NCBI RefSeq assembly: GCF_000764655.1
Contig: NZ_JRGL01000087.1
Coordinates: 60,536-124,535, forward strand
Direction of reading: 5' to 3'
DNA: 64,000 bases
Source of the DNA: Aeromonas aquatica
GTDB lineage: Bacteria > Pseudomonadota > Gammaproteobacteria > Enterobacterales > Aeromonadaceae
Below the pieces are notes generated by a model that worked only from the letters and a program-made list of their open reading frames with translations, ran no database searches and was not told where the DNA came from. Positions 43,895-64,000 of the stretch are shown one piece after another (the first letter of the stretch is position 1; the number at the start of each line of letters is the position of its first letter). Position numbers and translations under genes: made by a program.

Positions 43895-45610
43895 ATGTCC
43901 TCCCCCTCTCTCTTGTCCCGGCTGCGCCTACTGCCTGCCGATCTCGCCCTGCCTCCCCAGCTGTTGCAGACCCCTGAGTGGGACGGCCCCCTGTGCCGGG
44001 TGCGGCTCGACAACACCGGCGCCACCCCTGAGCCCGTGCGCGACTGGCTGCTGTTTGACGGCGAGCTGGGTATCTCCCCCGAGGCGGCCATCTACGGCGA
44101 GGGATTCCAGATGCTGGCCCAGACCATGGGCACCTGGCAGGCTCCGGCTCCGGTCGGCCGCTGCCCGGATGCGAACGTCTACCGCATCACGGCGGACTTG
44201 GGCTATCACACCGTCCACAACCTGCTGCTGGTAGCGCAGGACACGGGCTGGCTGCTGCTGGCATTTGCGAGCTGCCAGCGTTTCGGCGGCGAGTTTCGAC
44301 TCTATCCGAGTGGCCGGCTGCAGATCCTGATGAACGGCGAGGGACGGCAACTGCTGCCGGGCGAACATTGGCAGAGCGAAGCCCTGCTCTGTCTGGAAGG
44401 GCCGGACAGGGAGGCCCTGCTCAGGGAGCTGGCGGACTACATCGAGGCCGAACATCCTTCGCTGGTGGCGGACGTGGCCGCGCGCCCGAGTGGCTGGTGC
44501 TCCTGGTATCACTACTATGCGGACGTGAGCGCCGCCGACATTCGCGAGAACCTGGCAGTGCGGGCCGAGCGTTTCCCTGGGCTGCGCTATGTGCAGATCG
44601 ACGACGGCTACCAGGCCAGGATGGGGGACTGGCTCACTCCCTCCGCCAAGTTCGAGCAGGGGGTAGCGGCGCTTGCGGCCGAGATCCGGGCGGCGGGTTG
44701 CGAGCCGGCGCTCTGGGTCGCCCCCTTTATCGCCGAGCCGGGCTCTCGGGTGTTTCAGGATCACCCCGACTGGTTCGTGAAGGGGGATGACGGCCTGCCG
44801 CTGCCCTCGGAGCGGGTCACCTACGGCGGCTGGCGCTGCACCCCCTGGTATGTGCTGGACGGCACCCACCCCGAGGTGCAGGCCCACCTCGAGCGGGTGT
44901 TCCGGACCCTGCGCGAGCAGTGGGGCATTCACTACTTCAAGCTGGATGCCAACTTCTGGGGGGCCATCCACGGCGGCCACTTCTGCGATCCGTCCGCCAC
45001 CCGGGTCGAGGCCTATCGCCGCGGCATGGCGGCGGTGCTGCGCGGGGCGGGGGAGGGCGCCTTCCTGCTCGGCTGCAACGCCCCGCTCTGGCCGAGCCTG
45101 GGGCTGGTACACGGCATGCGGGTGAGCGACGACGTGGAGCGCCAGGGCCCGCGTTTTCGCCAGATAGCCCGGGAAGCCTTCTGCCGCGCCTGGCAAAACG
45201 ACCGGCTCTGGGCGCTGGATCCCGACTGTGTCTGCCTGCGGGACCTGCCAAACCAGCGGGCCGGCGAGCATGACTACCAGTTCCACCTCGCCGCCCTGGT
45301 GGCGAGCGGCGGCATGGTGTTGGCCGGCGACCGGCTGCAGGATCTTGACGAGGGCCAGGCTGGGCAACTGCACAGGCTGCTGGCCCTGTGCGAGGCGCGC
45401 GCGCCGGCGGCCCGTTTCGATGACATGAGTTTCAGCCGTGGCCGGGTGACGCTGCCGGAGGGGGGCGAGCTGCTGTGCCTGTTCAACTGGGACACCGAAG
45501 AGAAGACGGTGGAGGTGCCGGCAGGAGCCCTGGACTTCTGGCATGAGCGTCCTGTAGGGCAGCAGGTTGTGCTGCAAGGTGGGCAAGGCAGGGTGCTTAG
45601 CTACCGTTAA
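43895..45610 (+). CDS. GH36-family alpha-galactosidase-like glycosidase
   Basis: A cytoplasmic glycoside hydrolase of 571 residues with no signal peptide. The catalytic region has WCSWYHYYADVS near residue 200, VQIDDGYQ, the nucleophile aspartate in YFKLDANFWG (about Asp350) and the acid/base region RVSDDVE (about 410), in the order of GH36/clan GH-D. AAGGAG is well placed before the ATG. No transporter or other sugar gene is adjacent, so the substrate is not clear. Confidence 0.85.
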   Translation: MSSPSLLSRLRLLPADLALPPQLLQTPEWDGPLCRVRLDNTGATPEPVRDWLLFDGELGISPEAAIYGEGFQMLAQTMGTWQAPAPVGRCPDANVYRITADLGYHTVHNLLLVAQDTGWLLLAFASCQRFGGEFRLYPSGRLQILMNGEGRQLLPGEHWQSEALLCLEGPDREALLRELADYIEAEHPSLVADVAARPSGWCSWYHYYADVSAADIRENLAVRAERFPGLRYVQIDDGYQARMGDWLTPSAKFEQGVAALAAEIRAAGCEPALWVAPFIAEPGSRVFQDHPDWFVKGDDGLPLPSERVTYGGWRCTPWYVLDGTHPEVQAHLERVFRTLREQWGIHYFKLDANFWGAIHGGHFCDPSATRVEAYRRGMAAVLRGAGEGAFLLGCNAPLWPSLGLVHGMRVSDDVERQGPRFRQIAREAFCRAWQNDRLWALDPDCVCLRDLPNQRAGEHDYQFHLAALVASGGMVLAGDRLQDLDEGQAGQLHRLLALCEARAPAARFDDMSFSRGRVTLPEGGELLCLFNWDTEEKTVEVPAGALDFWHERPVGQQVVLQGGQGRVLSYR

Positions 45611-46349: not shown

Positions 46350-47777
46350 TCAGAGATCTTCGAGGTAGCGATAGAGGCTCTTGAGGATGGCGAAGTTCCG
46401 ATCGTTACCCTGATTTTGCTCCGCCAGCGCCTCGAGGCGGGGGACATAATCCGGCAGCCGCTGGCTGAAGTAGTCGCTGCAGTGCAGACGCCAGCGCTTC
46501 TGCTCGGCTTCGCTTAAGGTGTGTGGCCAGTTGCGGGCGCGATAACGAAACAGCATCTCGGGCAGGCGCGGGTCGCTGAAGGCAAATTCCCGCTCCCCCA
46601 GCAGATCCGCCGGGGTGGCGCGCACCAGATCCATGCTGGCCTTGTCGCCGTGACCGAAGAAACCGGCGTAGAGCTGGGTGTCGGGATCCGGATCGCTCTT
46701 GCCGGCGAACTCCTGGTTGAACACCTCCACCAGCTTTTCACGCACCTCGGGGTGGGCCCGCAGCAGGTTCAGGCTCTTGCGGCACTGCTCCCGGTCGACA
46801 CCGAGCTCGTCCGCCCGCTCCACGGTCAGGGTGGCGGCGGGGGCCAGCACCGGGCACTTGTTGATGTGCACCAGCTTGACCGGAATAGCGGCCAGCTCCC
46901 CCAGCTCGTCCTTTTTGGTGTAGAGCCGCTCGCGGATCTCGTCGCTGGTGAGCTCGATGAGGGGGGTCGGATCCCGGGTGAGGTCCACCATGATCACCGC
47001 GTTCTGGTTGGTCGGGTGCCAGGCCAGCGGTGACACCCAGCTCACGCAGCCCTGCCAGGGGGAGAACATCCCCGAGACGTGGGTCAGCGGCTTCATGGTC
47101 ACCACGTCGATCAGCGCCTTGACCTTGTTCTTGTTGCGCAGGGCAAACAGGTAGTCAAACAGTTTGGGCTGGGCTTGCTTCACCAGCTTGGCCAGCTCTA
47201 TGGTGGCCAACACGTCCGACAGCGCATCGTGGGCGTTGGCGTGGGCCACGCCGTTGGCCACCGTCAATTTTTCGAGCCGAAAACTCGGCTTGCCCTCTTC
47301 ATCGAAGGCCCACTCTATCCCCTCCGGGCGCAGGGCATAGCAGGCCCGCAGCATGTCGAGGATGTCCCAGCGAGAGTTGCCATTCTGCCAGCTGTAGGCA
47401 TAGGGGTCGTAGAAGTTGCGATACAGGGTGTAGCGGGTCACCTCGTCATCGAAGCGGATGCTGTTGTAGCCCAGCACGCAGGTATTGGGGGTTGCAAACT
47501 GTTCGTGGATCTGACGGATGAAGTCCGCCTCGCACAGTCCGTCCTTCATCGCCTTCTGTGGCGTGATGCCGGTGATGAGGCAGGCCTCGGGCTCGGGCAG
47601 ATAGTCCGCCGGCGGCTTGCAATAGATGACCAGCGGCTCGCCGATGATGTTGAAATCCCCGTCGGTGCGAATGCCGGCGAACTGCGCCGGCCTGTCTTTC
47701 GCGGGGCTTATCCCGAAGGTCTCGTAGTCGTGGAAGTAGAATGTGGGCTGGGTGGTCTGCTTCGCTGATGTGCTCAT
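46350..47777 (-). CDS. sbcB: Exodeoxyribonuclease I
   Basis: A 3'-5' single-strand exonuclease of 475 residues acting in recombination and mismatch repair. The DnaQ-fold motifs are present: FYFHDYETFG (Exo I) near residue 12, GYNSIRFDDEVTR (Exo II) and HDALSDVLATI (Exo III). The middle has VSGMFSPWQGCVSWVSPLAWHP as in E. coli. The ATG at 47777 is favoured; a GTG six codons upstream is possible. The prophage is inserted beside its 5' end. Confidence 0.94.
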   Translation of the reverse strand: MSTSAKQTTQPTFYFHDYETFGISPAKDRPAQFAGIRTDGDFNIIGEPLVIYCKPPADYLPEPEACLITGITPQKAMKDGLCEADFIRQIHEQFATPNTCVLGYNSIRFDDEVTRYTLYRNFYDPYAYSWQNGNSRWDILDMLRACYALRPEGIEWAFDEEGKPSFRLEKLTVANGVAHANAHDALSDVLATIELAKLVKQAQPKLFDYLFALRNKNKVKALIDVVTMKPLTHVSGMFSPWQGCVSWVSPLAWHPTNQNAVIMVDLTRDPTPLIELTSDEIRERLYTKKDELGELAAIPVKLVHINKCPVLAPAATLTVERADELGVDREQCRKSLNLLRAHPEVREKLVEVFNQEFAGKSDPDPDTQLYAGFFGHGDKASMDLVRATPADLLGEREFAFSDPRLPEMLFRYRARNWPHTLSEAEQKRWRLHCSDYFSQRLPDYVPRLEALAEQNQGNDRNFAILKSLYRYLEDL

Positions 47778-47896
47778 GTGTTCTTTTTTGTTCACGCTTC
47801 TGATTGATTTTTCAGGGTTTAGTGTCGTTCTGGTGAGGTGCAGATTCCGAAAACACTTTCATCGTTCACCCAAACTTGACGTTGTTCAATGGCCTG

Positions 47897-47939
47897 CTGG
47901 TACATTATCTGGTACAAAACACCCCATGAAACTGGTACA
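47897..47939 (+). repeat. Three direct CTGGTACA repeats before the integrase
   Basis: CTGGTACA occurs at 47897, 47909 and 47932 (steps of 12 and 23), and CCCCAT/ATGGGG brackets the last copy (47922-47952). They could be integrase arm sites or part of attL; the attachment core cannot be set without the other end. Confidence 0.5.
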
Positions 47940-47957
47940 AAATTTTATGGGGTGGCA

Positions 47958-49151
47958 ATGGCGTTATCAGATAGCTGGCTTCGAGGGGTGAATGGTAAAC
48001 CATATGCTGGCTCGAGCGAAGTGAACGACGGTGATGGGCTGAGTGTCCGGGTCTCTCCGAAGGGGCTGATCGCGTTCCAGGTTCGGCATGTGGTCGACGG
48101 GAAACGGGTCCGGACCTCTCTCGGTCGGTATCCTGCTCTGACCCTGCGCGAAGCACGGATCAAGGCCGATGAGCTCAAAAGTGGTGCCGTACAGATCAGT
48201 GCCTCGGGCGACGAGCCCACCCCGGCCGCCCTGTTTGACGAGTGGTTCGAGAAGTATGTGATGCGGGAGTGCCGAGAAGGCACCCAGAAGAACTATCGCT
48301 ACACCTTCTCGTCGGTGAAGAACCGCTTGCCTAACCGACCACTCAACCATATCACCATGGACATGTGGCTGAGCTATTTCGATGCCATCAGCGAGCGGGC
48401 CCCGGGGGTTACCCGTGCGGTGATCACGGGGTTGAAGGCCTGCTTCAACTGGCATATCCGCCGCGGTACGATCAACATGCCCAACATGATGAGTCTGCGG
48501 GCCAGGGATGTCGGGGCGCCAGCCAAGACGGGGCACCGGGTGTTGACGATTGCCGAGGTTGCCAAGATCTGGAGGGCCATCGAGGCCAGTCGGGCAGGCA
48601 CCGGCAACAAGGTGATCCATCTGCTTTGTCTGGTCTATGGCTGCCGGCTATCCGAGGCCAGAACGCTCAAGCGCCAAGACTTGGATTTCGAGTCTATGGT
48701 CTGGACGGTGCCGGCTGAGATCAGCAAGACTGGTCGGCCGATTCGCAGGCCCATTACGTCGGTGGGAAGGCAACTGTTTGAAAGAGCTGCGATGGCGTCG
48801 GTGGACCCGGTCTATCTGTTCCCTGGTCAAGGGGAGGGGAATGGGCCGCTGGAGATCCACTCGTGTAATCGACTGGTGAGCCGCTTGCGCAGCAACTTGG
48901 GGATCCCCCATTGGCGGATCCATGATGCTCGCCGGACCCTGTCGACCCGGTTATCGGAAATGGGGGTGTCGCCCCATATCACCGAAGTGATGCTGGGGCA
49001 CACCCTGCTTGGCGTGATGGCTGTCTACAACAAGCATGACTGGCTGGAGGATCAAGCGGTTGCCTATGAGCGCTGGTGGACGGTGATTCAGCGAGAGCTA
49101 GGCGTTGCCACTGATCCGGTTGTGGCTGTCAATCCAGGCCATGATGTGTGA
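47958..49151 (+). CDS. int: Tyrosine-recombinase phage integrase
   Basis: A site-specific recombinase of 397 residues. The N-terminal arm-binding domain has the DUF4102-like pattern (DGDGLSVRVSPKGLIAFQVRH, RTSLGRYPALTLREAR). A core-binding domain (about 105-190) and a catalytic domain follow, with Arg in YGCRLSEA, HDARRTLSTR, LGHTLLG and the nucleophile Tyr in VYNKHDW. GGGGTGG precedes the ATG at 47958; the upstream in-frame Met at 47889 would read through the direct repeats. Confidence 0.93.
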   Translation: MALSDSWLRGVNGKPYAGSSEVNDGDGLSVRVSPKGLIAFQVRHVVDGKRVRTSLGRYPALTLREARIKADELKSGAVQISASGDEPTPAALFDEWFEKYVMRECREGTQKNYRYTFSSVKNRLPNRPLNHITMDMWLSYFDAISERAPGVTRAVITGLKACFNWHIRRGTINMPNMMSLRARDVGAPAKTGHRVLTIAEVAKIWRAIEASRAGTGNKVIHLLCLVYGCRLSEARTLKRQDLDFESMVWTVPAEISKTGRPIRRPITSVGRQLFERAAMASVDPVYLFPGQGEGNGPLEIHSCNRLVSRLRSNLGIPHWRIHDARRTLSTRLSEMGVSPHITEVMLGHTLLGVMAVYNKHDWLEDQAVAYERWWTVIQRELGVATDPVVAVNPGHDV

Positions 49152-49727: not shown

Positions 49728-49808
49728 CTATATCAGTGCCAGCGCAACGAATGCGGCCAGTGTGTTGAGCGCCAGTATGGTGAGCCCGGCGGCTTGATGC
49801 TTGGTCAT
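49728..49808 (-). CDS. 26-residue single-pass membrane peptide
   Basis: Starts MTKHQAAG and continues as a single hydrophobic helix to the stop. Evidence that it is real: the start overlaps the methyltransferase stop (ATGA), AAGGAAG is well placed upstream, and the next ribosome site (TAGGAGGGAG) begins at its stop. No function known. Confidence 0.6.
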   Translation of the reverse strand: MTKHQAAGLTILALNTLAAFVALALI

Positions 49809-51616
49809 GCTGCCTTCCTTATCTGCAGGTGCTTGTATGGGTTGTTGGCTCTGGCGATGGCCGCCATCGGCGGCGGGCTGACGCTGTTGCCGACCATCAG
49901 AACCTGATCGGTGATGGAAAGCGGGGTGCCATCGTGACCGCGGTCATGGATGTAGTGGCGTGGCATGCCCTGGCAGCCATAGAGCTCCTTCGGTACCAGC
50001 ATGCGCAGGCCGATATCCACGATCACCCAAGTGTTGCCACACCAGGCCACGGTCACCAGTGCCAGCCGGTCCTTGGTGGTGATGGTGTGCATCGGGTCGG
50101 TGACGGCCCCCCACTGCCCACCGCTCGAGTAGTAGCGCATCAGGAAGGCGCTGACCCGCAGGGCCCCGGCCTCTTGCTCCGGTGTCAGGCCAAACTCACC
50201 CGGGCTAGCCATCACTGTTTGCACCAGGGCGTGGTGCTGGCCCGCCGAAACGATGGTGGGGAGCTGGCTCTCCGGAGTGCTCGGCGGCAGGTTCTTGCGC
50301 AGGTGCACCATGAAAGCGGAGGCCAGTTGCTGCTGGCTACCGCTCGAGGTGATGGTGCTGCATGGGTCAGCCACGGATCTAGCAGGCACGGTGTTGAACC
50401 CACCGTTGGCCTGCACCATCAAGGGGGCCGCCAGCATGGACTTGCCACCGCCGCCGGCCATGATGGCCGCAGCAGGTACATCCACCCCGTGCTCGCCTCC
50501 TTTACCGAAGTGGCGCACCACAAGAGGGGCCAGACTCGGGTTGCAGACGGCGAACGCGCCACCCTTGGGCCAGCCGGTGATGGTGCGCAGCGGGGCATCA
50601 ACCGAATCGATACCTCGCCCTGACCAGTTGGCCAGCTCAATGATGAAGGGCTTGGAATTGGTCAGCACCTCGCGGATCACCCCGATCGCCACGCGCTCCA
50701 AGGTGGCATCGGCCAGCGGGCGTTTGACATTGAGCCCTTGTGCCCGGGCTTCTTCCTTGGTGAGGAAAATGCTGGGGGTGGGGATCGACCAGTCAATGTG
50801 ATCCGCCGTCACTCGGTACGGTTTGAGGTGACTGCCTGGTACCGGTGCCTTGCAATGGGTTGGGGCGGGCCAGCAAACGGGCTCCCCGTCTCGGCGGGCA
50901 ACGAGGTAGAGGCGCTGGCGGCTGGTGGCCGCACCGTAATCGGCTGCATTCTTGACGGTATGGTCCAGTTCATACCCCATGCGTTCGATACTGGCCAGAA
51001 AGCGGCGCCAGGTCTGGCCCGCCCGCTTGGGATCCGGTACCAGATACTGCTGCTGGCGTGGCACCCGCTCCCCGGGCTCGGCGATATGCTGCTCGATCTT
51101 GGTCTTCTTGCCGCGCAGAACCTCGACCAGCTTGATCACCCGGCCGGTGGCCTTGTCCCGCTTGGCGACGAGGGGCCCCCAGGTGCGCATCTGCTTGACG
51201 TTCTCCATGGAGAGCACGGCAGGTTTGCCCAGGGCAAGCCACTTGGTTATCACCCAGGCCAGGCTGCGGATCTCCTGCTTGCGCGGCTGACCGCCAGCGG
51301 CCTGGGAGTGGTGGGTGCAATCCGGGCTGGCATGCAGCCAACCGATCGAGCGCCCCGCCAGCACCGTAACCGGATCCACTGCCCAGATATCCTCTTGCAG
51401 ATGCAGGGCTTCCGGGTGGTTTGCCTGGTGCATGGAGAGCGCCTTGGGGTTGTGGTTGATGGCGATGTGCACCGGGCGACCCAGCCCGCGCTCTAGCCCG
51501 GTGCTGGCGCCACCGCCGCCAGCGAACAGATCCACGTTGATGGCAGACTTCAGGTTGAGCGGAGCCCGGCTCACCTTGGCCCTGACGGTACGGGAGCGGC
51601 GAGTGGACTTGATCAT
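49805..51616 (-). CDS. C5-cytosine DNA methyltransferase
   Basis: A 603-residue DNA cytosine methylase. Motif I is VDLFAGGGGASTG (about 28-40), the catalytic region is HASPDCTHHSQAAGG with Cys near residue 100, and motif VI is MENVKQM. The target-recognition and C-terminal parts are long (insert of about 200 residues). The usual Pro-Cys is replaced by Pro-Asp-Cys, as in some phage enzymes. No cognate restriction nuclease is adjacent, so it probably protects phage DNA from host restriction. Confidence 0.9.
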   Translation of the reverse strand: MIKSTRRSRTVRAKVSRAPLNLKSAINVDLFAGGGGASTGLERGLGRPVHIAINHNPKALSMHQANHPEALHLQEDIWAVDPVTVLAGRSIGWLHASPDCTHHSQAAGGQPRKQEIRSLAWVITKWLALGKPAVLSMENVKQMRTWGPLVAKRDKATGRVIKLVEVLRGKKTKIEQHIAEPGERVPRQQQYLVPDPKRAGQTWRRFLASIERMGYELDHTVKNAADYGAATSRQRLYLVARRDGEPVCWPAPTHCKAPVPGSHLKPYRVTADHIDWSIPTPSIFLTKEEARAQGLNVKRPLADATLERVAIGVIREVLTNSKPFIIELANWSGRGIDSVDAPLRTITGWPKGGAFAVCNPSLAPLVVRHFGKGGEHGVDVPAAAIMAGGGGKSMLAAPLMVQANGGFNTVPARSVADPCSTITSSGSQQQLASAFMVHLRKNLPPSTPESQLPTIVSAGQHHALVQTVMASPGEFGLTPEQEAGALRVSAFLMRYYSSGGQWGAVTDPMHTITTKDRLALVTVAWCGNTWVIVDIGLRMLVPKELYGCQGMPRHYIHDRGHDGTPLSITDQVLMVGNSVSPPPMAAIARANNPYKHLQIRKAA

Positions 51617-52620
51617 GCGGTCACCTCATCGTTCAGAGAGAGCGGCAGTTGATTTTCATCCGGGGTCAACAGGTGCCTGGCCATTTGGATGGCGTTCTCG
51701 AGGATCACTACACCATCAGTGCCGCTCGCCTGCAGGTTATGGATGTAGCCAGCCAGTAACCGTGTATTGGCAGGTGTGAGCAGGTCAGCTTCATCAATCT
51801 GATAGATGACCGATTTGATAGCTGGGTGGTGCTGCCAGTCCTGAAGAGGTTCGATACCTTGGGGTGTGATCACTGGCACCGGTTCGGCCGCAGCAGGCTG
51901 ATCTTGGATCACAGCCGGTGCCAGCTTGTGTGTGGTGCTCCGGATGACCTGATCGGCGGCCAAGGTGAGCTCTACGGCCTGGCGGTGGATCATGTCGAGA
52001 ATGATCTGGCCGGTGGTGATGAGGTCGTCACGGCGCAGGCGCGCCTCGGGGCGGCGCTCGCCCTGCCAGGTGGTGTCGAAAATCACCACGGCAGAGGCAA
52101 AGCCGCTGGAGCTGGGCTTGTCCTTCTTAGGGTCGCGGGGGACGTACCAGCTCGGCACCTCAAAGCCGATGCGGCCGCTGATGAACTGGATGAAGTCGGC
52201 ATCCTCCGGCCACCAGGTCTCGCTGGTGGCCGCCTTGATAAGCAGCATGATCTTGGCGCCCAGCGCCCGCTGTTCACAGCAGTAGTTGAGGATGGCCTCC
52301 ATCCCGGTGATGGGTTTGCCCTCGCTATCCGTGCAGGGGCGCGAATAGGGCGGGTTGGCGTAGGCCACGCCCCCCAGGCGGCGTAGGTCGGCGGCCAGCT
52401 CCTGGGTGAGGGCGTTGTCTTCGGCATCGTAGTAGTGCGGCACCAGGTGGTTGCAGTCGTCGGCAAACATGTCGAGTACCACCGGCCCGAGGGTGGGGGC
52501 GAACTGGTGGAATAGGCCCCAGGCCAATGCCTTGGGGGTCTGCCACTGGTCGCCGATCTGTTTAAGTTCGTGGTCTGGCTGGACCTGCAGCTCGGCCAGC
52601 GCTTGGGCGTAGTGGTTCAT
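51613..52620 (-). CDS. Phage DNA N6-adenine methyltransferase
   Basis: A 335-residue protein. The N-terminal half is a phage-type Dam-like methylase: WQTPKALAWGLFHQFAP near residue 25, VVLDMFADD (SAM-binding) and the catalytic YANPPYSRP near residue 81. The C-terminal half (about 190-335) is of unknown role. The Met at 52620 overlaps the stop of the upstream gene. With the downstream cytosine methylase it gives the prophage two base modifications. Confidence 0.88.
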   Translation of the reverse strand: MNHYAQALAELQVQPDHELKQIGDQWQTPKALAWGLFHQFAPTLGPVVLDMFADDCNHLVPHYYDAEDNALTQELAADLRRLGGVAYANPPYSRPCTDSEGKPITGMEAILNYCCEQRALGAKIMLLIKAATSETWWPEDADFIQFISGRIGFEVPSWYVPRDPKKDKPSSSGFASAVVIFDTTWQGERRPEARLRRDDLITTGQIILDMIHRQAVELTLAADQVIRSTTHKLAPAVIQDQPAAAEPVPVITPQGIEPLQDWQHHPAIKSVIYQIDEADLLTPANTRLLAGYIHNLQASGTDGVVILENAIQMARHLLTPDENQLPLSLNDEVTA

Positions 52621-53153
52621 GCAGCCTCCTGCCCTTGGGAGATGTACTGGCGTAGCCCTTCGCGAACCGCTTGAATGACGCGGATCAGGTGCGTGTAGTC
52701 GGGGTTTTTTTTCTCCGGAAGGTCCATCCACCATTCGTCCCCAAGAACGGCTTCCATCAGCGCCGTGTTGCTGCAGTAGTCATTGGTGAGAGTGATGCTA
52801 TCTGCCTCATTCCAGAATTTGAGGGCATCGTCCTTTTCCAACTCTCCGCACCGGCGTTGCTGGATAATCTTGCCCCGCAAATACTCGCCAAGCTCACCCA
52901 TGTTGGTGATCGGCACATGTGAGCGGCAGGTGCTCAGGTTGCCTGCCAAATAATCGTCATCGCATGAAACGAAGAACTGCTCGACACTACGGCCGCCCAT
53001 GGCGGGCCAGCTCGCTGACCAGCTCTTGCGGAAGCAGGTAATGGTGATCCGGCCGCGCCCTGGCTCGAAGTTCTCAAGGTAGATGGTGACCGGATCCAGG
53101 CGGTCGAGCTCGGTCAGACCCAGCTTGGTGTTGGTAGATACCTGGATCTTCAT
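52617..53153 (-). CDS. Phage protein of unknown function
   Basis: A 178-residue soluble protein starting MKIQVSTNTKLGL. The middle has a Trp/Ser-rich stretch (SWSASWPAMGGRSVEQFF) and the C-terminus a helical tail. It sits between a DUF4406-like gene and the adenine methylase with ATGA overlaps on both sides. Family not recognised; possibly a lambda NinX/Ea-type accessory protein. Confidence 0.75.
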   Translation of the reverse strand: MKIQVSTNTKLGLTELDRLDPVTIYLENFEPGRGRITITCFRKSWSASWPAMGGRSVEQFFVSCDDDYLAGNLSTCRSHVPITNMGELGEYLRGKIIQQRRCGELEKDDALKFWNEADSITLTNDYCSNTALMEAVLGDEWWMDLPEKKNPDYTHLIRVIQAVREGLRQYISQGQEAA

Positions 53154-53566: not shown

Positions 53567-53704
53567 TTTTAGGTCCTCGAAGGGGAAACAATGAACCCAC
53601 CGTGCTGGTGGGCTTCATTTGTGAGGCATGTCTATTGCAACCTAGCAGAAGCGTTAAACCATGTACCTAGGTGTGGTTTGTTCAAACACTATGTGTTAAG
53701 AGTA

Positions 53705-54907
53705 CTAGCAAGCTATGCTTTTTATCCACCACCAAGCATCAGGGGTAAGAGAGAAATATACAACATGAGCTAAAACAAAACCGATCGCCAGAACAATAGA
53801 TATTGCCCATAGGATGCATTTCTGAAAAAAAAGCCGTTTGTCTAACGCTTGAAAAATGTCGTTAAAATTTGACGCAATGGTTTGGTGTTTATTCTTAATT
53901 AATTCTTTCTGGCGAGTGATTTCGCTATCTAGAACCTCAAGTGTATGTCGTTGGTTACAAATAAGGAAACTTACTAGGATAACGAAAATCCAACAACCCA
54001 ATAATACTGCTGAGTTAACCCAAGTCTCATAACTTGTCGCTTTATCCGTGCTTGCATCTTTCATTTGTGTAGCGATAATAACTGTAGCTACAGGAATACC
54101 GACCACTTGGTTCTGAATATCGGAAAATACCTTATGTATCTTTCCGGTATATTCAATTTTGGCAGCTTCAAGATCGCTTCTGACTTTGTCATAAGAAAAA
54201 TTAGAAACAAAAAGTTTATACCCGTCTGAAAATTTCTTTTGAAGCTCAGATAAATGCGACAGTAACTGTTGGAATCGATTCTCTGAAGGGGTGCTCTTTA
54301 TAAGATTGATTGCTGCATCAGCGAGAATAACAAGTTTTTGCTCTCTATGAGTATCATTTGTGAACGTTTCTACGATCTTTTGCATGACCGAAAAATCAGC
54401 AGAAAGAAGGTCTGATGTGTCGTAGCTTATTGGTAATGAAAATTTACCTTCATTAATAAATACTAACTCCTCTCTATCGGAGTCTAAGTATGCGGCAGAT
54501 TCCTTGAGTAAATTTATAAAGGTAAGCAGCTTCTGATATAGTTGTATATCAGAAGGGACATCTGAATCTCCTCGGCCATATTTACTGTTAATTAAAAAAT
54601 AACGCTTCGGCTCTTCAATATGAGCTTTTCTGGTTCTGAGTAGGTTATCCAAATCGATAGCCAACACACCAAGACCGATTCTAGGAGAATCTATGCGCAC
54701 ATGTACTTTTTGTCCAACTACTAACTGGTCAGGATCTCCAGAAGTGAGGCATATCCCTGAATCGTCAAGATTCTCCTCCTTCAGAAGCAAGATAAGGGCA
54801 TCTCTCAAGTCTTGACTTGATAGTTCCAGCAATCCGCTAGTGGCGTTGCTATCGAACACCACGTTGCGGTAAATGCTCAGTAGGAGAGGGAATGTAGCCT
54901 TACTCAT
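53705..54907 (-). CDS. Membrane protein, second gene of the module behind cI
   Basis: A 400-residue protein, AT-rich unlike most of the prophage. The long N-terminal part (1-265) is soluble, with RYFLINSKYGRGDSD near residue 125 and an acidic ELVFINEGKF segment. Two strong membrane helices follow near 298-318 (LLGCWIFVILVSFLIC) and 364-388 (ILWAISIVLAIGFVLAHVVYF), perhaps with a third weak one near 270. A charged helical linker lies between them. Its start overlaps the NdpA-like gene's stop by eight bases. I do not recognise the family. Position and architecture recall a RexB- or KwaA-like membrane effector; that is inference. Confidence 0.75.
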   Translation of the reverse strand: MSKATFPLLLSIYRNVVFDSNATSGLLELSSQDLRDALILLLKEENLDDSGICLTSGDPDQLVVGQKVHVRIDSPRIGLGVLAIDLDNLLRTRKAHIEEPKRYFLINSKYGRGDSDVPSDIQLYQKLLTFINLLKESAAYLDSDREELVFINEGKFSLPISYDTSDLLSADFSVMQKIVETFTNDTHREQKLVILADAAINLIKSTPSENRFQQLLSHLSELQKKFSDGYKLFVSNFSYDKVRSDLEAAKIEYTGKIHKVFSDIQNQVVGIPVATVIIATQMKDASTDKATSYETWVNSAVLLGCWIFVILVSFLICNQRHTLEVLDSEITRQKELIKNKHQTIASNFNDIFQALDKRLFFQKCILWAISIVLAIGFVLAHVVYFSLTPDAWWWIKSIAC

Positions 54908-55967
54908 CATCTCCGTCGTCTTGTCGCAACTCGTTACGTAACCTAGTCTTGAGCTCATCAGGTACGTTGGTGATTGTCAATGTCTCATCAGTATTGAAGA
55001 GTACGTGCTTTTCATTTAGTGCGGTCCGATCACATTCGAACTTCCATGACTTGGTTTGACCAGAGAACTTTACCAGCTTTCGTAGTACTCGACGGTCCGG
55101 AACAAATCCTTCAGACAGCTTTAGCTCTGGGTCAGACAACTCTTCAACTAGTTCATCAGGTGTGTTAGGCCAAAGCTCATTTGAAAATGCCTGAATATCA
55201 AATGGTTCATCTTCTTTAGAAAACTTAGAACATATAGCGTGAGCTTTGCTAAGGAAGGCCTCTTTTTCAATTTCATTCATTTCGCGCTTAGTCGCAAAAG
55301 ATTCTAGACCTTTTATTAGAGTTGCGGTCTCTGCTGCCGCAGCGACACTATTATCACAACCAAGGAAGGCCTTGAAATAGTCTGAAACTTTGGCTTGGTC
55401 CCGTCCTTTCAAAAAGCTTAAGTAGCGTTCACTTCCAGCATTCCAACTGGTCATATCGATCTTGCCCGCTAATCTAAAACCCTTAATATCTAGATAAACG
55501 CTATCCTCTACATCCTTTCCCTCAGTCAATGCGGCACCAATCTCATCGGTAAGGATTGCAACAAGTAGATAGTCTGAGGCGTCTCTCTTCGTGTGTGCTA
55601 TGAAAACGTGGCCACCAGTTGCGGCTGTTTTCATCGCCTTTGCACAGAGTGTCTTCATCATTGATATTGTCAGTTCAATGAAAGATTTGCTTTTCCCTAC
55701 ATAGTATTCCCGAACATACTTTTGAACGGGATAATTTTCTTCATCACTTTCAAAGTGTCCAAACGATTTCCCTGGACGCTTGCCATATACATGAATCAAC
55801 TGGTCCACTAAACGTTGCACGGTTCTGGTAACAGGAAGCAGGTCATGCCTTTCATCAATAGCTAAAACGCCATCTTTTTTGGTAAGATCGTGGACGATAA
55901 CACTATTAATTACATTTTGAGATTCAATTATCTCACTAACTTCAATAACAGCTGGTGCCGACATCAT
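54900..55967 (-). CDS. NdpA/YejK-like nucleoid-associated protein
   Basis: A 355-residue protein that reads as the 37-kDa nucleoid-associated (NdpA, YejK) family: an acidic N-terminal part, FIELTISMMKTLCAKAMKTA near residue 95, GHVFIAHTK..ASDYLLVAILTD and KVSDYFKAFLGCDN. Chromosomal relatives are DNA-associated proteins. Here it is AT-rich cargo in a prophage, directly downstream of cI and in the same orientation, with the membrane-protein gene overlapping its end. AAGGGGAT precedes the double ATG. A role as a sensor in phage exclusion is a hypothesis. Confidence 0.8.
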   Translation of the reverse strand: MMSAPAVIEVSEIIESQNVINSVIVHDLTKKDGVLAIDERHDLLPVTRTVQRLVDQLIHVYGKRPGKSFGHFESDEENYPVQKYVREYYVGKSKSFIELTISMMKTLCAKAMKTAATGGHVFIAHTKRDASDYLLVAILTDEIGAALTEGKDVEDSVYLDIKGFRLAGKIDMTSWNAGSERYLSFLKGRDQAKVSDYFKAFLGCDNSVAAAAETATLIKGLESFATKREMNEIEKEAFLSKAHAICSKFSKEDEPFDIQAFSNELWPNTPDELVEELSDPELKLSEGFVPDRRVLRKLVKFSGQTKSWKFECDRTALNEKHVLFNTDETLTITNVPDELKTRLRNELRQDDGDDE

Positions 55968-56069
55968 ATCCCCTTAGTAAACATTTAAAAATGTGGAACT
56001 GTTCCCATTACTTTTTTGTTATTTATCCGGGCAATATTAAGGAATGACAACCCTCCATGGTTGAGTCTC

Positions 56070-56732
56070 CTAGCGGCGTTTTCTGCGGCGGCGGTGTTCC
56101 ACCATGGTGCCGATAATCTGGATATGTTGGCGATCGGATCGCATGGTGGGGAAGTCGTCATTAAGTGGTACAAGCTCGAAGACTTCCTGCCCATCCTCAC
56201 CCACCCCTCGGGGACGGTATTTCTTGAAGGTAGCCGCTTCCTCGCCATTTTTGGCCACCACGAAGTCACCTGGGTGGGGGTGTTCATCAGGGTCGATCAG
56301 CACCACATCCCCTTCGACAAACTCCGGCTCCATGGAGTGGCCTTTTAGCTCAATGGCAAAAGCCCGGTCGCCAAGTTCGAGATCGGTGGTGATATAGACC
56401 CAGTTACCATCGCACTCGCGGATCTCACAGGTCTCTGTCCAGACCCCAGCCTGCACATAGCTTATTACTGGAATACGATGAATGTCGGGTTGGACGATCG
56501 CCATGTTCTGTTGATCATCCACGATAGTTCCGTCAATACCTATGTTGATGTTCTTCAGCTCAAGCGCAGCCATGATCTGCAGGATGATATCCATAGAAGG
56601 TTCTCGGCGCTTGTTTAGCCAATGACCGATCGCCCCCTGAGTTACTCCTAGCTTTTCAGCTAGTTGCTCCTGAGTGATACCAAGTTTCTTCATCCGGCTC
56701 TTAGCCAGACTGTGCCATGTCTCTTTTTCCAT
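56070..56732 (-). CDS. cI: CI-type prophage repressor (HTH plus S24 peptidase)
   Basis: A 220-residue LexA/CI-like repressor. The N-terminal HTH (residues 10-60) has GITQEQLAEKLGVTQGAIGHWL. The C-terminal S24 domain has the nucleophile in ELKGHSMEPEF (about Ser143) and the general-base lysine in DFVVAKNGEEATFKKY, so RecA-stimulated self-cleavage is expected. The open frame reaches 56918, but the Met at 56732 starts the HTH. No ribosome site precedes it; the predicted promoter places the transcript start at or next to the ATG, as in lambda cI leaderless mRNA. Confidence 0.92.
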   Translation of the reverse strand: MEKETWHSLAKSRMKKLGITQEQLAEKLGVTQGAIGHWLNKRREPSMDIILQIMAALELKNINIGIDGTIVDDQQNMAIVQPDIHRIPVISYVQAGVWTETCEIRECDGNWVYITTDLELGDRAFAIELKGHSMEPEFVEGDVVLIDPDEHPHPGDFVVAKNGEEAATFKKYRPRGVGEDGQEVFELVPLNDDFPTMRSDRQHIQIIGTMVEHRRRRKRR

Positions 56733-56844: not shown

Positions 56845-57051
56845 ATGAACAACATCAAGGCACTGCGAGACAAAGCAGGCAAAACACAATCTGATTTGGC
56901 TGCTGTAGTTGGCGTCACGCAGGGGGCGGTTGCCCATTACGAAAAGAGTCGTCGTAAACCCGGATTGACCACCTGCCGAAAGATCACATCTGCCATCAAT
57001 GGCTGGGGGATTAACTGTTCCATCAATGATGTTTTTCCGCCAGAAAGTTGA
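56845..57051 (+). CDS. cro: Cro-type HTH repressor
   Basis: A 68-residue DNA-binding protein that is almost wholly one HTH: LRDKAGKTQSDLAAVVGVTQGAVAHYEKSRRKPG. Its recognition helix (TQGAVAHYE) resembles that of the CI protein here (TQGAIGHWL), as expected for Cro/CI competition on the same operators. First gene of the rightward early transcript; its stop overlaps the next start (TGATG). Confidence 0.88.
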   Translation: MNNIKALRDKAGKTQSDLAAVVGVTQGAVAHYEKSRRKPGLTTCRKITSAINGWGINCSINDVFPPES

Positions 57052-61887: not shown

Positions 61888-62260
61888 TTCATGGACAGTG
61901 ACCCTGCCATGGCCCCCTTCAACCAACCGGATCTGGCGCAATGTGGCCGTAAGTGGCAAGCCCAGAACCCTGTTGAGCCAGGAGGGGAGGGTCTATCGCA
62001 AGGCTGCGGCCGATGCCTGCCTGGTTGCCAAGCTGGCCGGCAAGCAGATCTCCGATCGGTTGGCCCTGCGGCTGGTGGTACAGGCCCCTGACCGGCGAGC
62101 CCGGGATCTGGATAACATGGTGAAGGCGGTGCAAGACGCCCTGACCCACGCCGGAGTGTGGCTGGACGATAGCCAGATCGACCGGCTGCTGGTGGAGCGC
62201 GGGCCGGTAGTGAAAGGGGGAATGGTGTCGGTAACGGTGGAGGTGATGAGTGCGCTTTGA
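61874..62260 (+). CDS. rusA: RusA-family Holliday junction resolvase
   Basis: A 128-residue junction endonuclease. It starts with WTVTLPWPPSTNRIWR, then has RRARDLDNMVKAVQDALTHAGVWLDDSQID, containing the conserved catalytic aspartates of RusA. It resolves recombination and replication junctions of the phage. The start overlaps the HNH-like gene and its stop overlaps the GTG of the Q-like gene. Confidence 0.93.
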   Translation: MPKADSWTVTLPWPPSTNRIWRNVAVSGKPRTLLSQEGRVYRKAAADACLVAKLAGKQISDRLALRLVVQAPDRRARDLDNMVKAVQDALTHAGVWLDDSQIDRLLVERGPVVKGGMVSVTVEVMSAL

Positions 62261-62876
62261 ATATGCAATCGCGATTGGGGATCCTCGTTCTGTGATGCTG
62301 CAGGCCTATCAGGCCCAGTCAACGGGGCGTTCTCATTTGACAAAGAGTGATGTGATGACAGCATTGGGATTTGTTCAGAAGCATAACGGGGCAGGCATGG
62401 CGCTGGTGATGGCGCGCTACTGCAAGGACCTTGGGGATGCCAAGAAGGCCTTGCTGGCGGTGCAGGCCGAGTGCACCAAGCTTGCTCCCCGCTATGTGGG
62501 GGCCAACAAGGAACGTGGCCACGGCATGGCCTTGCGCCGGGTGGCCGAGTTGGCCCTGGAACACTACTGCCGCACGGTGGACACGCCGGGGGCGGCCTGT
62601 CACCCGCAGTTCTGCAGGGGGAGGGGAGTGATCCGCGACCTGGAACTGAGCCTCCTGCACGGCAAGGCGATCGATAAGGTCTGCCCACGCTGCAACGGTA
62701 CCGGCCTGCGCCCCATCCCGGGCACCCAGATCAGACGCGCAATTGAACTGTTGGCTGGTGGACTGACCCGTGGGCAATGGGAGCGGGGCTGGTATCCGCT
62801 CTATCTGGCGGTGCTGGCCTGGTGCCATGTGCAGGAGAGTGAGACTGAGAATATGTTCACTTCTGTCATTTTTTAA
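62250..62876 (+). CDS. Q-like late antitermination protein
   Basis: A 208-residue protein starting at GTG 62250 (GGAGGTGATGA upstream). Two cysteine pairs with spacing CHPQFC...VCPRCNGTG (about 125-155) form a zinc-finger pattern, and the following helical part (RRAIELLAGGLTRGQWERGW) fits phage Q/antitermination families. It is the last gene of the GC-rich early region, as expected for Q. Confidence 0.78.
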   Translation: MRFEYAIAIGDPRSVMLQAYQAQSTGRSHLTKSDVMTALGFVQKHNGAGMALVMARYCKDLGDAKKALLAVQAECTKLAPRYVGANKERGHGMALRRVAELALEHYCRTVDTPGAACHPQFCRGRGVIRDLELSLLHGKAIDKVCPRCNGTGLRPIPGTQIRRAIELLAGGLTRGQWERGWYPLYLAVLAWCHVQESETENMFTSVIF

Positions 62877-63219: not shown

Positions 63220-64000
63220 GTGACCACTACAGTATTTAGAAACTCGAATGGTAATGTGACAATGGCGAGTGATAGCAGGGTCACATGGGTAAATGGAGAC
63301 AATCTCCCAATACAGTGGTTTGATTCAACTGATTTTTTAAAAACGCTCACTATTGATGGTGTGATGTATGGTTTTGCTGGAACGAATTTTATGTTCAAAA
63401 TGTTCCTGCAAAATTATACTACAGCGCAGCAATCCGAGTTTGTTCTTGATACATTGGTTTCATTTGCCAAGAGCAATAGGGTTCAGTTTTTCATTATTCG
63501 CTTCGATGGCGTTTCACTTAAATTATTTGCATATTCCCCACCCGAATCTGGCAACCCAGAAATATTGCGTACATCTAGAGATCCTGCAATTGAAAAGACC
63601 ATTTATGCAATTGGTTCTGGGAAATATGCAAAGGAATTTAGTAAAAATAAGACAGCTATCAATGCTCAAGTTCCGATTCGTCGGATAATAGCAGCGAATA
63701 TAATTGGTTTGAAAAAAAGCAGAGTGTCAGAACTTGATAAGGTAGCAGCCTTAAGACCTCTAACACTTGAACAATCATCTATGGCATACCATGCTTGCAA
63801 AAGTAAGGGTGGTGATATTTTTACCGGCGGAGAGGTTAATATGACTCAACATGCAACACAGCAGCAAATCCAAAAACAGATAGATATTCTTGACCGTATG
63901 GATCAGAGAGCAAAAGCTGTTGGTGCAGTGTGTGCTAGTCCCGTTGATGCTACACTGGAAGTTAAACAGCTACAGCTTATGGGTCAATACTCTGTTAGTC
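63220..64000 (+). CDS. HslV/proteasome-like Ntn hydrolase, C-terminus off the window
   Basis: An open frame of at least 260 codons with no stop before the window edge. With GTG start it begins (M)TTTVFRNSNGNVTMASDSR, like HslV (MTTIVSVRRNGHVVIAGDG) and proteasome beta subunits: Thr2 would be the N-terminal nucleophile and Asp18 the conserved partner. It continues with KTLTIDGVMYGFAGT (lysine near 41; HslV has a Lys before a similar GFAG) and IYAIGSGKYAKEF near 133, close to the HslV IAIGSGG segment. Later, GGDIFTGGEV recalls the HslV C-terminal part. The rest is helical. An in-frame stop at 63169 limits the start; no ATG is available. The gene is AT-rich prophage cargo. No HslU-like partner is visible. 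Confidence 0.8.
   Translation, partial: MTTTVFRNSNGNVTMASDSRVTWVNGDNLPIQWFDSTDFLKTLTIDGVMYGFAGTNFMFKMFLQNYTTAQQSEFVLDTLVSFAKSNRVQFFIIRFDGVSLKLFAYSPPESGNPEILRTSRDPAIEKTIYAIGSGKYAKEFSKNKTAINAQVPIRRIIAANIIGLKKSRVSELDKVAALRPLTLEQSSMAYHACKSKGGDIFTGGEVNMTQHATQQQIQKQIDILDRMDQRAKAVGAVCASPVDATLEVKQLQLMGQYSVS

What the first reader, a model, noticed from the sequence alone, without database searches (positions are those of the whole stretch)
53705..55967. Two-gene NdpA-like plus membrane-protein module in the lambda rexAB position
Directly downstream of cI, same strand, two overlapping AT-rich genes encode a nucleoid-associated-type protein and a protein with a large soluble domain and two C-terminal membrane helices. 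RexA/RexB (DNA-binding sensor plus membrane effector) and Kiwa (DNA-binding KwaB plus membrane KwaA) share this plan, but neither family is recognisable here. Expressed from the lysogen, the pair could exclude other phages.
Basis: partly seen in the sequence, partly recalled or inferred. Interest (0 to 1): 0.8.

Follow-up and report, generated by a model that had tools for sequence, protein, structure and literature searches.

The report
DS-1-like phage exclusion pair beside cI
A dormant virus in this bacterial genome carries, right behind its own repressor gene, two overlapping genes related to a recently described bacterial anti-phage system (DS-1): a protein of the NdpA/YejK nucleoid family and a protein with predicted membrane segments, which together likely block infection by other phages.

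Summary
Behind cI (102-nt gap, same strand) lie a 355-aa NdpA/YejK-family protein (A) and a likely 400-aa membrane protein (B), overlapping by 8 nt, at 36-44% GC in a roughly 60% GC phage. Both proteins match, far below cut-off, the two NCBIfam models for DS-1, an E. coli anti-phage system (A 59.5 of 330 bits, B 89.2 of 315); profile comparison confirms that B and DS-1B are homologous (E 1.1e-15). A lies directly upstream of B in 86 of 89 loci; the rest are two truncated copies and a contig edge. A and B trees run parallel (rho 0.93). Paired NdpAs, DS-1's included, fall on one side of a supported branch, apart from housekeeping YejK and three lone phage NdpAs. A repressor-like gene sits upstream on the same strand in 11 of 23 distinct viral contigs. 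I judge it a divergent DS-1-type exclusion module in the rex slot: a new variant of a known kind. DNA sensing by A and membrane breach by B are inferred; nothing was tested at the bench.

The parts
54900..55967 (-). gene A: NdpA/YejK-family (NA37) protein, 355 aa; predicted sensor
53705..54907 (-). gene B: protein with a soluble N-terminal part and C-terminal membrane segments, likely 400 aa (ORF open to 54958); predicted membrane effector
   Evidence: PHROG 5023; DS1_2 89.2 bits, cut-off 315; profile-profile with DS-1B E 1.1e-15; start by homologs; hydrophobic segments
56070..56732 (-). cI-type repressor, 220 aa from the likely ATG (ORF open to a GTG at 56918); presumed to share its transcript with A-B
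   Evidence: HTH_3 and Peptidase_S24; translation; promoter-like site at 56767-56740 would put the transcript start close to the ATG (weak; start inferred)
55968..56069 (-). 102-nt gap between cI and A; no terminator-like site found in it
53594..53614 (-). terminator-like hairpin downstream of B
   Evidence: 6 terminator-like sites found in the region, 3.0 expected

Best explanation
The two genes are a prophage-borne pair homologous to the E. coli anti-phage system DS-1, placed directly behind cI, and they likely let the lysogen exclude other phages: A is predicted to recognise invading or replicating phage DNA, and B is predicted to respond by breaching the inner membrane and so would abort the infection. 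Shown: gene order, overlap, A's family, B's hydrophobic segments, near-obligate linkage, parallel divergence, homology to DS-1. Inferred: expression with cI, DNA sensing by A, contact between A and the soluble part of B, and that the conserved D-I-Q-N-Q ... I-P-V-A-T segment plus two membrane helices form or gate a leak.
For: DS-1 homology of both genes, with a YejK domain listed among newly validated defence domains (PMC13092281, section 5). Linkage 86 of 89. In the window's genus 3 of 37 genomes carry a second NA37 gene, and the same 3 carry B. Mirror trees rho 0.93, n 71. Paired A proteins split from YejK and lone phage NdpA. Repressor-like gene upstream on the same strand in 11 of 23 viral contigs. 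Conserved proline in the segment before the first membrane helix. Low GC, typical of a transferred accessory gene.
Against: Both genes fall far below the DS-1 cut-offs, so function may have shifted. DS-1's mechanism is not given in the text I saw. NA37 without B is common in phages, so NdpA alone does not mean defence. The repressor-adjacent place is a minority overall (14 of 60 loci, 3 of 37 genome contigs). No pore fold was found for B. DNA binding by this A is not shown.
Confidence: 0.5

Rival explanations
1. Defence by another step: A and B hold or block incoming phage DNA at the membrane (injection, replication or packaging) without any leak, so protected cells survive.
For: Same homology and linkage as the main reading; B pairs a soluble part with membrane segments and A is a nucleoid-family protein, which would suit a tether.
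Against: The most conserved stretch of B lies at the membrane entry, more like a working segment than a plain anchor; this is inference.
Confidence: 0.28
2. Lysogeny regulator: A tunes the cI/cro switch or silences phage genes, and B places it at the membrane; any exclusion is a by-product.
For: Position behind cI. A mobile-element NdpA2 acts in transcription control of the ICE PAPI-1 (PMC8565334, passages).
Against: The PAPI-1 protein is described as 97% identical to its housekeeping NdpA and as working with TprA, so it is not of this kind. Many pairs lie far from any repressor: 46 of 60 loci with enough DNA.
Confidence: 0.1
3. Phage DNA metabolism: A is a replication or topology aid taken from the host, and B is incidental.
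For: F116 carries a lone NdpA between recombination genes and methyltransferases; 68 phage records match A but only 7 match B.
Against: The three lone phage NdpAs that I placed fall with housekeeping YejK, the paired ones apart; B is hardly ever without A; here the pair lies on the repressor's strand, away from the replication genes.
Confidence: 0.05

Closest known systems
DS-1 (NCBIfam NF053868 DS1_1 and NF053869 DS1_2; DefensePredictor, PMC13092281)
   Same: Two adjacent genes, NA37 protein first and membrane-type protein second, both homologous to ours; the E. coli copy opened also sits in a prophage.
   Different: Scores far below both curated cut-offs; B's N-terminal part is not aligned (profile match starts at residue 95); the E. 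coli copy lies beside antiterminator Q, ours behind cI.
Lambda RexAB and P. putida RexABpp
   Same: Place behind a CI-type repressor; DNA-associated protein plus membrane protein (PMC12894663, passages).
   Different: A is YejK-type; RexA being RdgC-like is recalled, and A shows no profile kinship with RdgC. RexA and RexB sequences were not compared.
Kiwa (KwaA/KwaB)
   Same: Plan of a DNA-associated protein with a membrane partner.
Housekeeping YejK/NdpA
   Different: Accessory second copy, separate lineage, tied to B.

Membership tests
DS-1 | A passes the DS1_1 curated cut-off (330 bits) | tested here: not met
   59.5 bits, E 2.8e-16
DS-1 | B passes the DS1_2 curated cut-off (315 bits) | tested here: not met
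   89.2 bits, E 2.9e-25
DS-1 | A and B homologous to the DS-1 proteins, same order | tested here: met
DS-1 | reduces phage plating | not testable with these tools
   needs plaque assays
Kiwa | KwaA/KwaB sequence families | tested here: not met
   no KwaA/KwaB model in PADLOC and no PF16162 in Pfam; hhalign probability 0.2
Kiwa | A has the KwaB fold | tested here: inconclusive
RexAB | two genes directly downstream of the CI repressor, same strand | tested here: met
RexAB | RexA/RexB sequence or fold | tested here: inconclusive
NA37/YejK | A passes PF04245 gathering score (24.6) | tested here: met
   250.3 bits

The most novel reading that the evidence does not exclude
DS-1 is one twig of a large superfamily of exclusion modules in which a nucleoid protein of the YejK/NdpA fold was turned once into a phage-DNA alarm wired to its own membrane-breaching partner, and which unrelated temperate phages have placed again and again behind their repressor: a third, sequence-unrelated answer, beside RexAB and Kiwa, to the same design problem.
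Probability: 0.45. Interest if true: 0.72.

Novelty: new variant of a known kind. Interest (0 to 1): 0.52.

Why it matters
DS-1 has a name and a plating result, but the text I saw gives no mechanism. This clade ties it to a lysogeny slot and to a broad family of diverged pairs, gives conserved residues to test, and offers a natural contrast: housekeeping YejK and the paired copy in the same cell. If A senses phage DNA, one can ask what separates a nucleoid protein that tolerates its own chromosome from one that sounds an alarm.

Tried and rejected

CI operator repeats: none convincing. Defence-island test: of 354 neighbour proteins called within 6 kb in 42 collapsed loci I gave 104 to the scans. 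PADLOC (25 of 118 families shown) lists one member each for ZorA, ZorB, class I Argonaute, Shedu SduA and type I methyltransferase, 2 for TniQ, 4 for mad2 and 2 for mad3; Pfam's commonest is phage integrase, 4 members. No background was run, so I claim no enrichment.

The first viral scan with the single sequence confirmed nothing; the alignment query worked. DS-1B from E. coli found no match in the phage collection. A paper search for DS-1 with NA37 found nothing.

Full report
OBSERVATION. The pair is real. On the minus strand, A (54900-55967, 355 aa) follows cI after a 102-nt gap and overlaps B. Homologs show that B most likely starts at 54907 (400 aa), an 8-nt overlap. cI carries HTH_3 and Peptidase_S24 domains; cro-like, CII-like and O-like genes follow on the other strand, an integrase lies at 47889-49151 and an antiterminator Q at 62250-62876. 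The pair has 36-44% GC against about 57-66% further out. No terminator-like site lies between cI and A; one lies downstream of B. Promoter- and terminator-like hits in the region (9 and 6) are only modestly above shuffles (6.7 and 3.0).

FAMILIES. A is NA37/NdpA/YejK (E 4.1e-74). B has no significant Pfam family and is PHROG 5023, unknown function. NCBIfam gives remote hits to DS1_1 (59.5 bits, cut-off 330) and DS1_2 (89.2 bits, cut-off 315). To see what DS-1 is, I took a pair from a genome of the same family (L001), whose B passes its cut-off, and searched E. coli genomes with its DNA: 105 of 5,426 have a match; the 20 rows listed cover about a tenth of the query, inside the A gene. The one I opened (strain FORC_069) has the pair in a prophage, converging on antiterminator Q, and its proteins pass both cut-offs (348.7 and 375.2 bits); so do both of L001's. 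The DefensePredictor paper (PMC13092281; I saw the outline, sections 5 and 15 and passages) lists a YejK nucleoid-associated domain among newly validated defence domains. The main text held has no whole-word 'DS-1', so the link from that sentence to DS-1 rests on the NCBIfam names. Profile comparison puts B and DS-1B together at 98.6% probability, E 1.1e-15, 243 columns.

LINKAGE. 47 loci from genome contigs and 37 from viral contigs, plus five, make 89; a few are the same DNA in both collections. A lies directly upstream in 86; the others are two truncated copies of B (L048, L049, one named a plasmid contig) and one contig that starts inside B (L078). After collapsing B at 95% identity 73 loci remain, 71 with A, of which 66 overlap (median 14 nt). 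In the window's genus 37 of 37 genomes carry an NA37 gene of the housekeeping type; 3 carry a second NA37 gene, and the same 3 carry B. A and B tree distances correlate (rho 0.93, n 71 pairs, the window and E. coli DS-1 included; p 0.001 by 999 permutations). Shared descent alone can give this, so it shows joint inheritance, not contact.

ONE PAIRED LINEAGE. In a tree of 87 rows (71 paired A, 16 housekeeping YejK) YejK is one side of a 100/100 branch. In a second tree I used 41 of the 71 paired rows, 11 YejK and 3 lone phage NdpA; I chose the 41 for spread and left out the longest branch of the first tree, L053. All 41 paired rows, DS-1 included, lie on one side of a 99/92 branch; lone proteins of F116, PseuP_222 and Vibrio phage P2 lie with YejK. 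Against a simple reading: NA37 without B is common in phages (68 records match A, 7 match B), and F116 carries one amid recombination genes. I checked four such neighbourhoods (3.5 kb flanks or to the record's end) with the B profile and none had B, while the positive, Klebsiella phage Kp4865-4, did. So NdpA in a phage does not by itself mean defence.

SLOT. A repressor-like gene (iterated profile from this cI, loose) lies within 2.5 kb upstream on the same strand in 14 of 60 collapsed loci with enough DNA: 11 of 23 viral and 3 of 37 genome contigs. On the opposite strand it is 2 of 60; downstream on the same strand 0, that denominator not being printed. Ten candidate repressors were scanned, eight of them among the 14: nine hit HTH, CI-repressor or S24 families, L054's did not. 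L087 and L090 copy the window closely: S24 repressor, 97-nt gap, A, B. Phage types differ: tail-protein neighbours in L009 and L081, holin or amidase genes downstream in L054, L076 and L086, integrase downstream in L087; naming the first P2-like is my reading. Other copies sit in chromosomes, on plasmids (9 records; one opened with annotation) and in Sinorhizobium phage phi2LM21. So the rex slot is a favoured home, not the only one.

MECHANISM. Lambda RexAB and P. putida RexABpp are described as DNA-binding sensor plus membrane effector behind a CI-type repressor (PMC12894663, passages). By anatomy A-B follows that plan with other proteins. I commit to: expressed in the lysogen, A detects foreign or replicating phage DNA, engages B, and B breaches the membrane. 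Defence as such I hold at about 0.8, the full chain at 0.5. Searches for NdpA or YejK with phage (listings, and passages of six papers) showed phage-genome, regulation and defence papers but, in what I saw, nothing on this pair's function; the library is open-access papers only.

VERDICT. A divergent, cI-linked relative of DS-1: new variant of a known kind.

Noticed in passing
L128 (G000 contig 71, around 44482-45000): KwaB 1441-2409, KwaA 2425-3018: The same genome carries a genuine Kiwa pair elsewhere (KwaB 453 bits, KwaA 281 bits), so one cell holds Kiwa and the A-B pair.
   Followed up: partly
window 63220-63999: An AT-rich ORF running off the window end lies just after antiterminator Q, the slot that holds DS-1 in E. 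coli; no Pfam or PADLOC hit.
   Followed up: partly
window 49805-52734: Two adjacent, overlapping methyltransferase genes (C5-cytosine and Dam-type) lie downstream of the pair on the same strand.
   Followed up: no
window 46350-49151: The integrase gene adjoins an exonuclease gene of the Exonuc_X-T_C type, possibly the host side of the attachment site.
   Followed up: no
L054 7702-8520 and L009 2102-2779: Proteins of PHROG 6521 (moron, membrane protein) lie between the repressor and A-B in two different phages, so other accessory genes share the slot.
   Followed up: no
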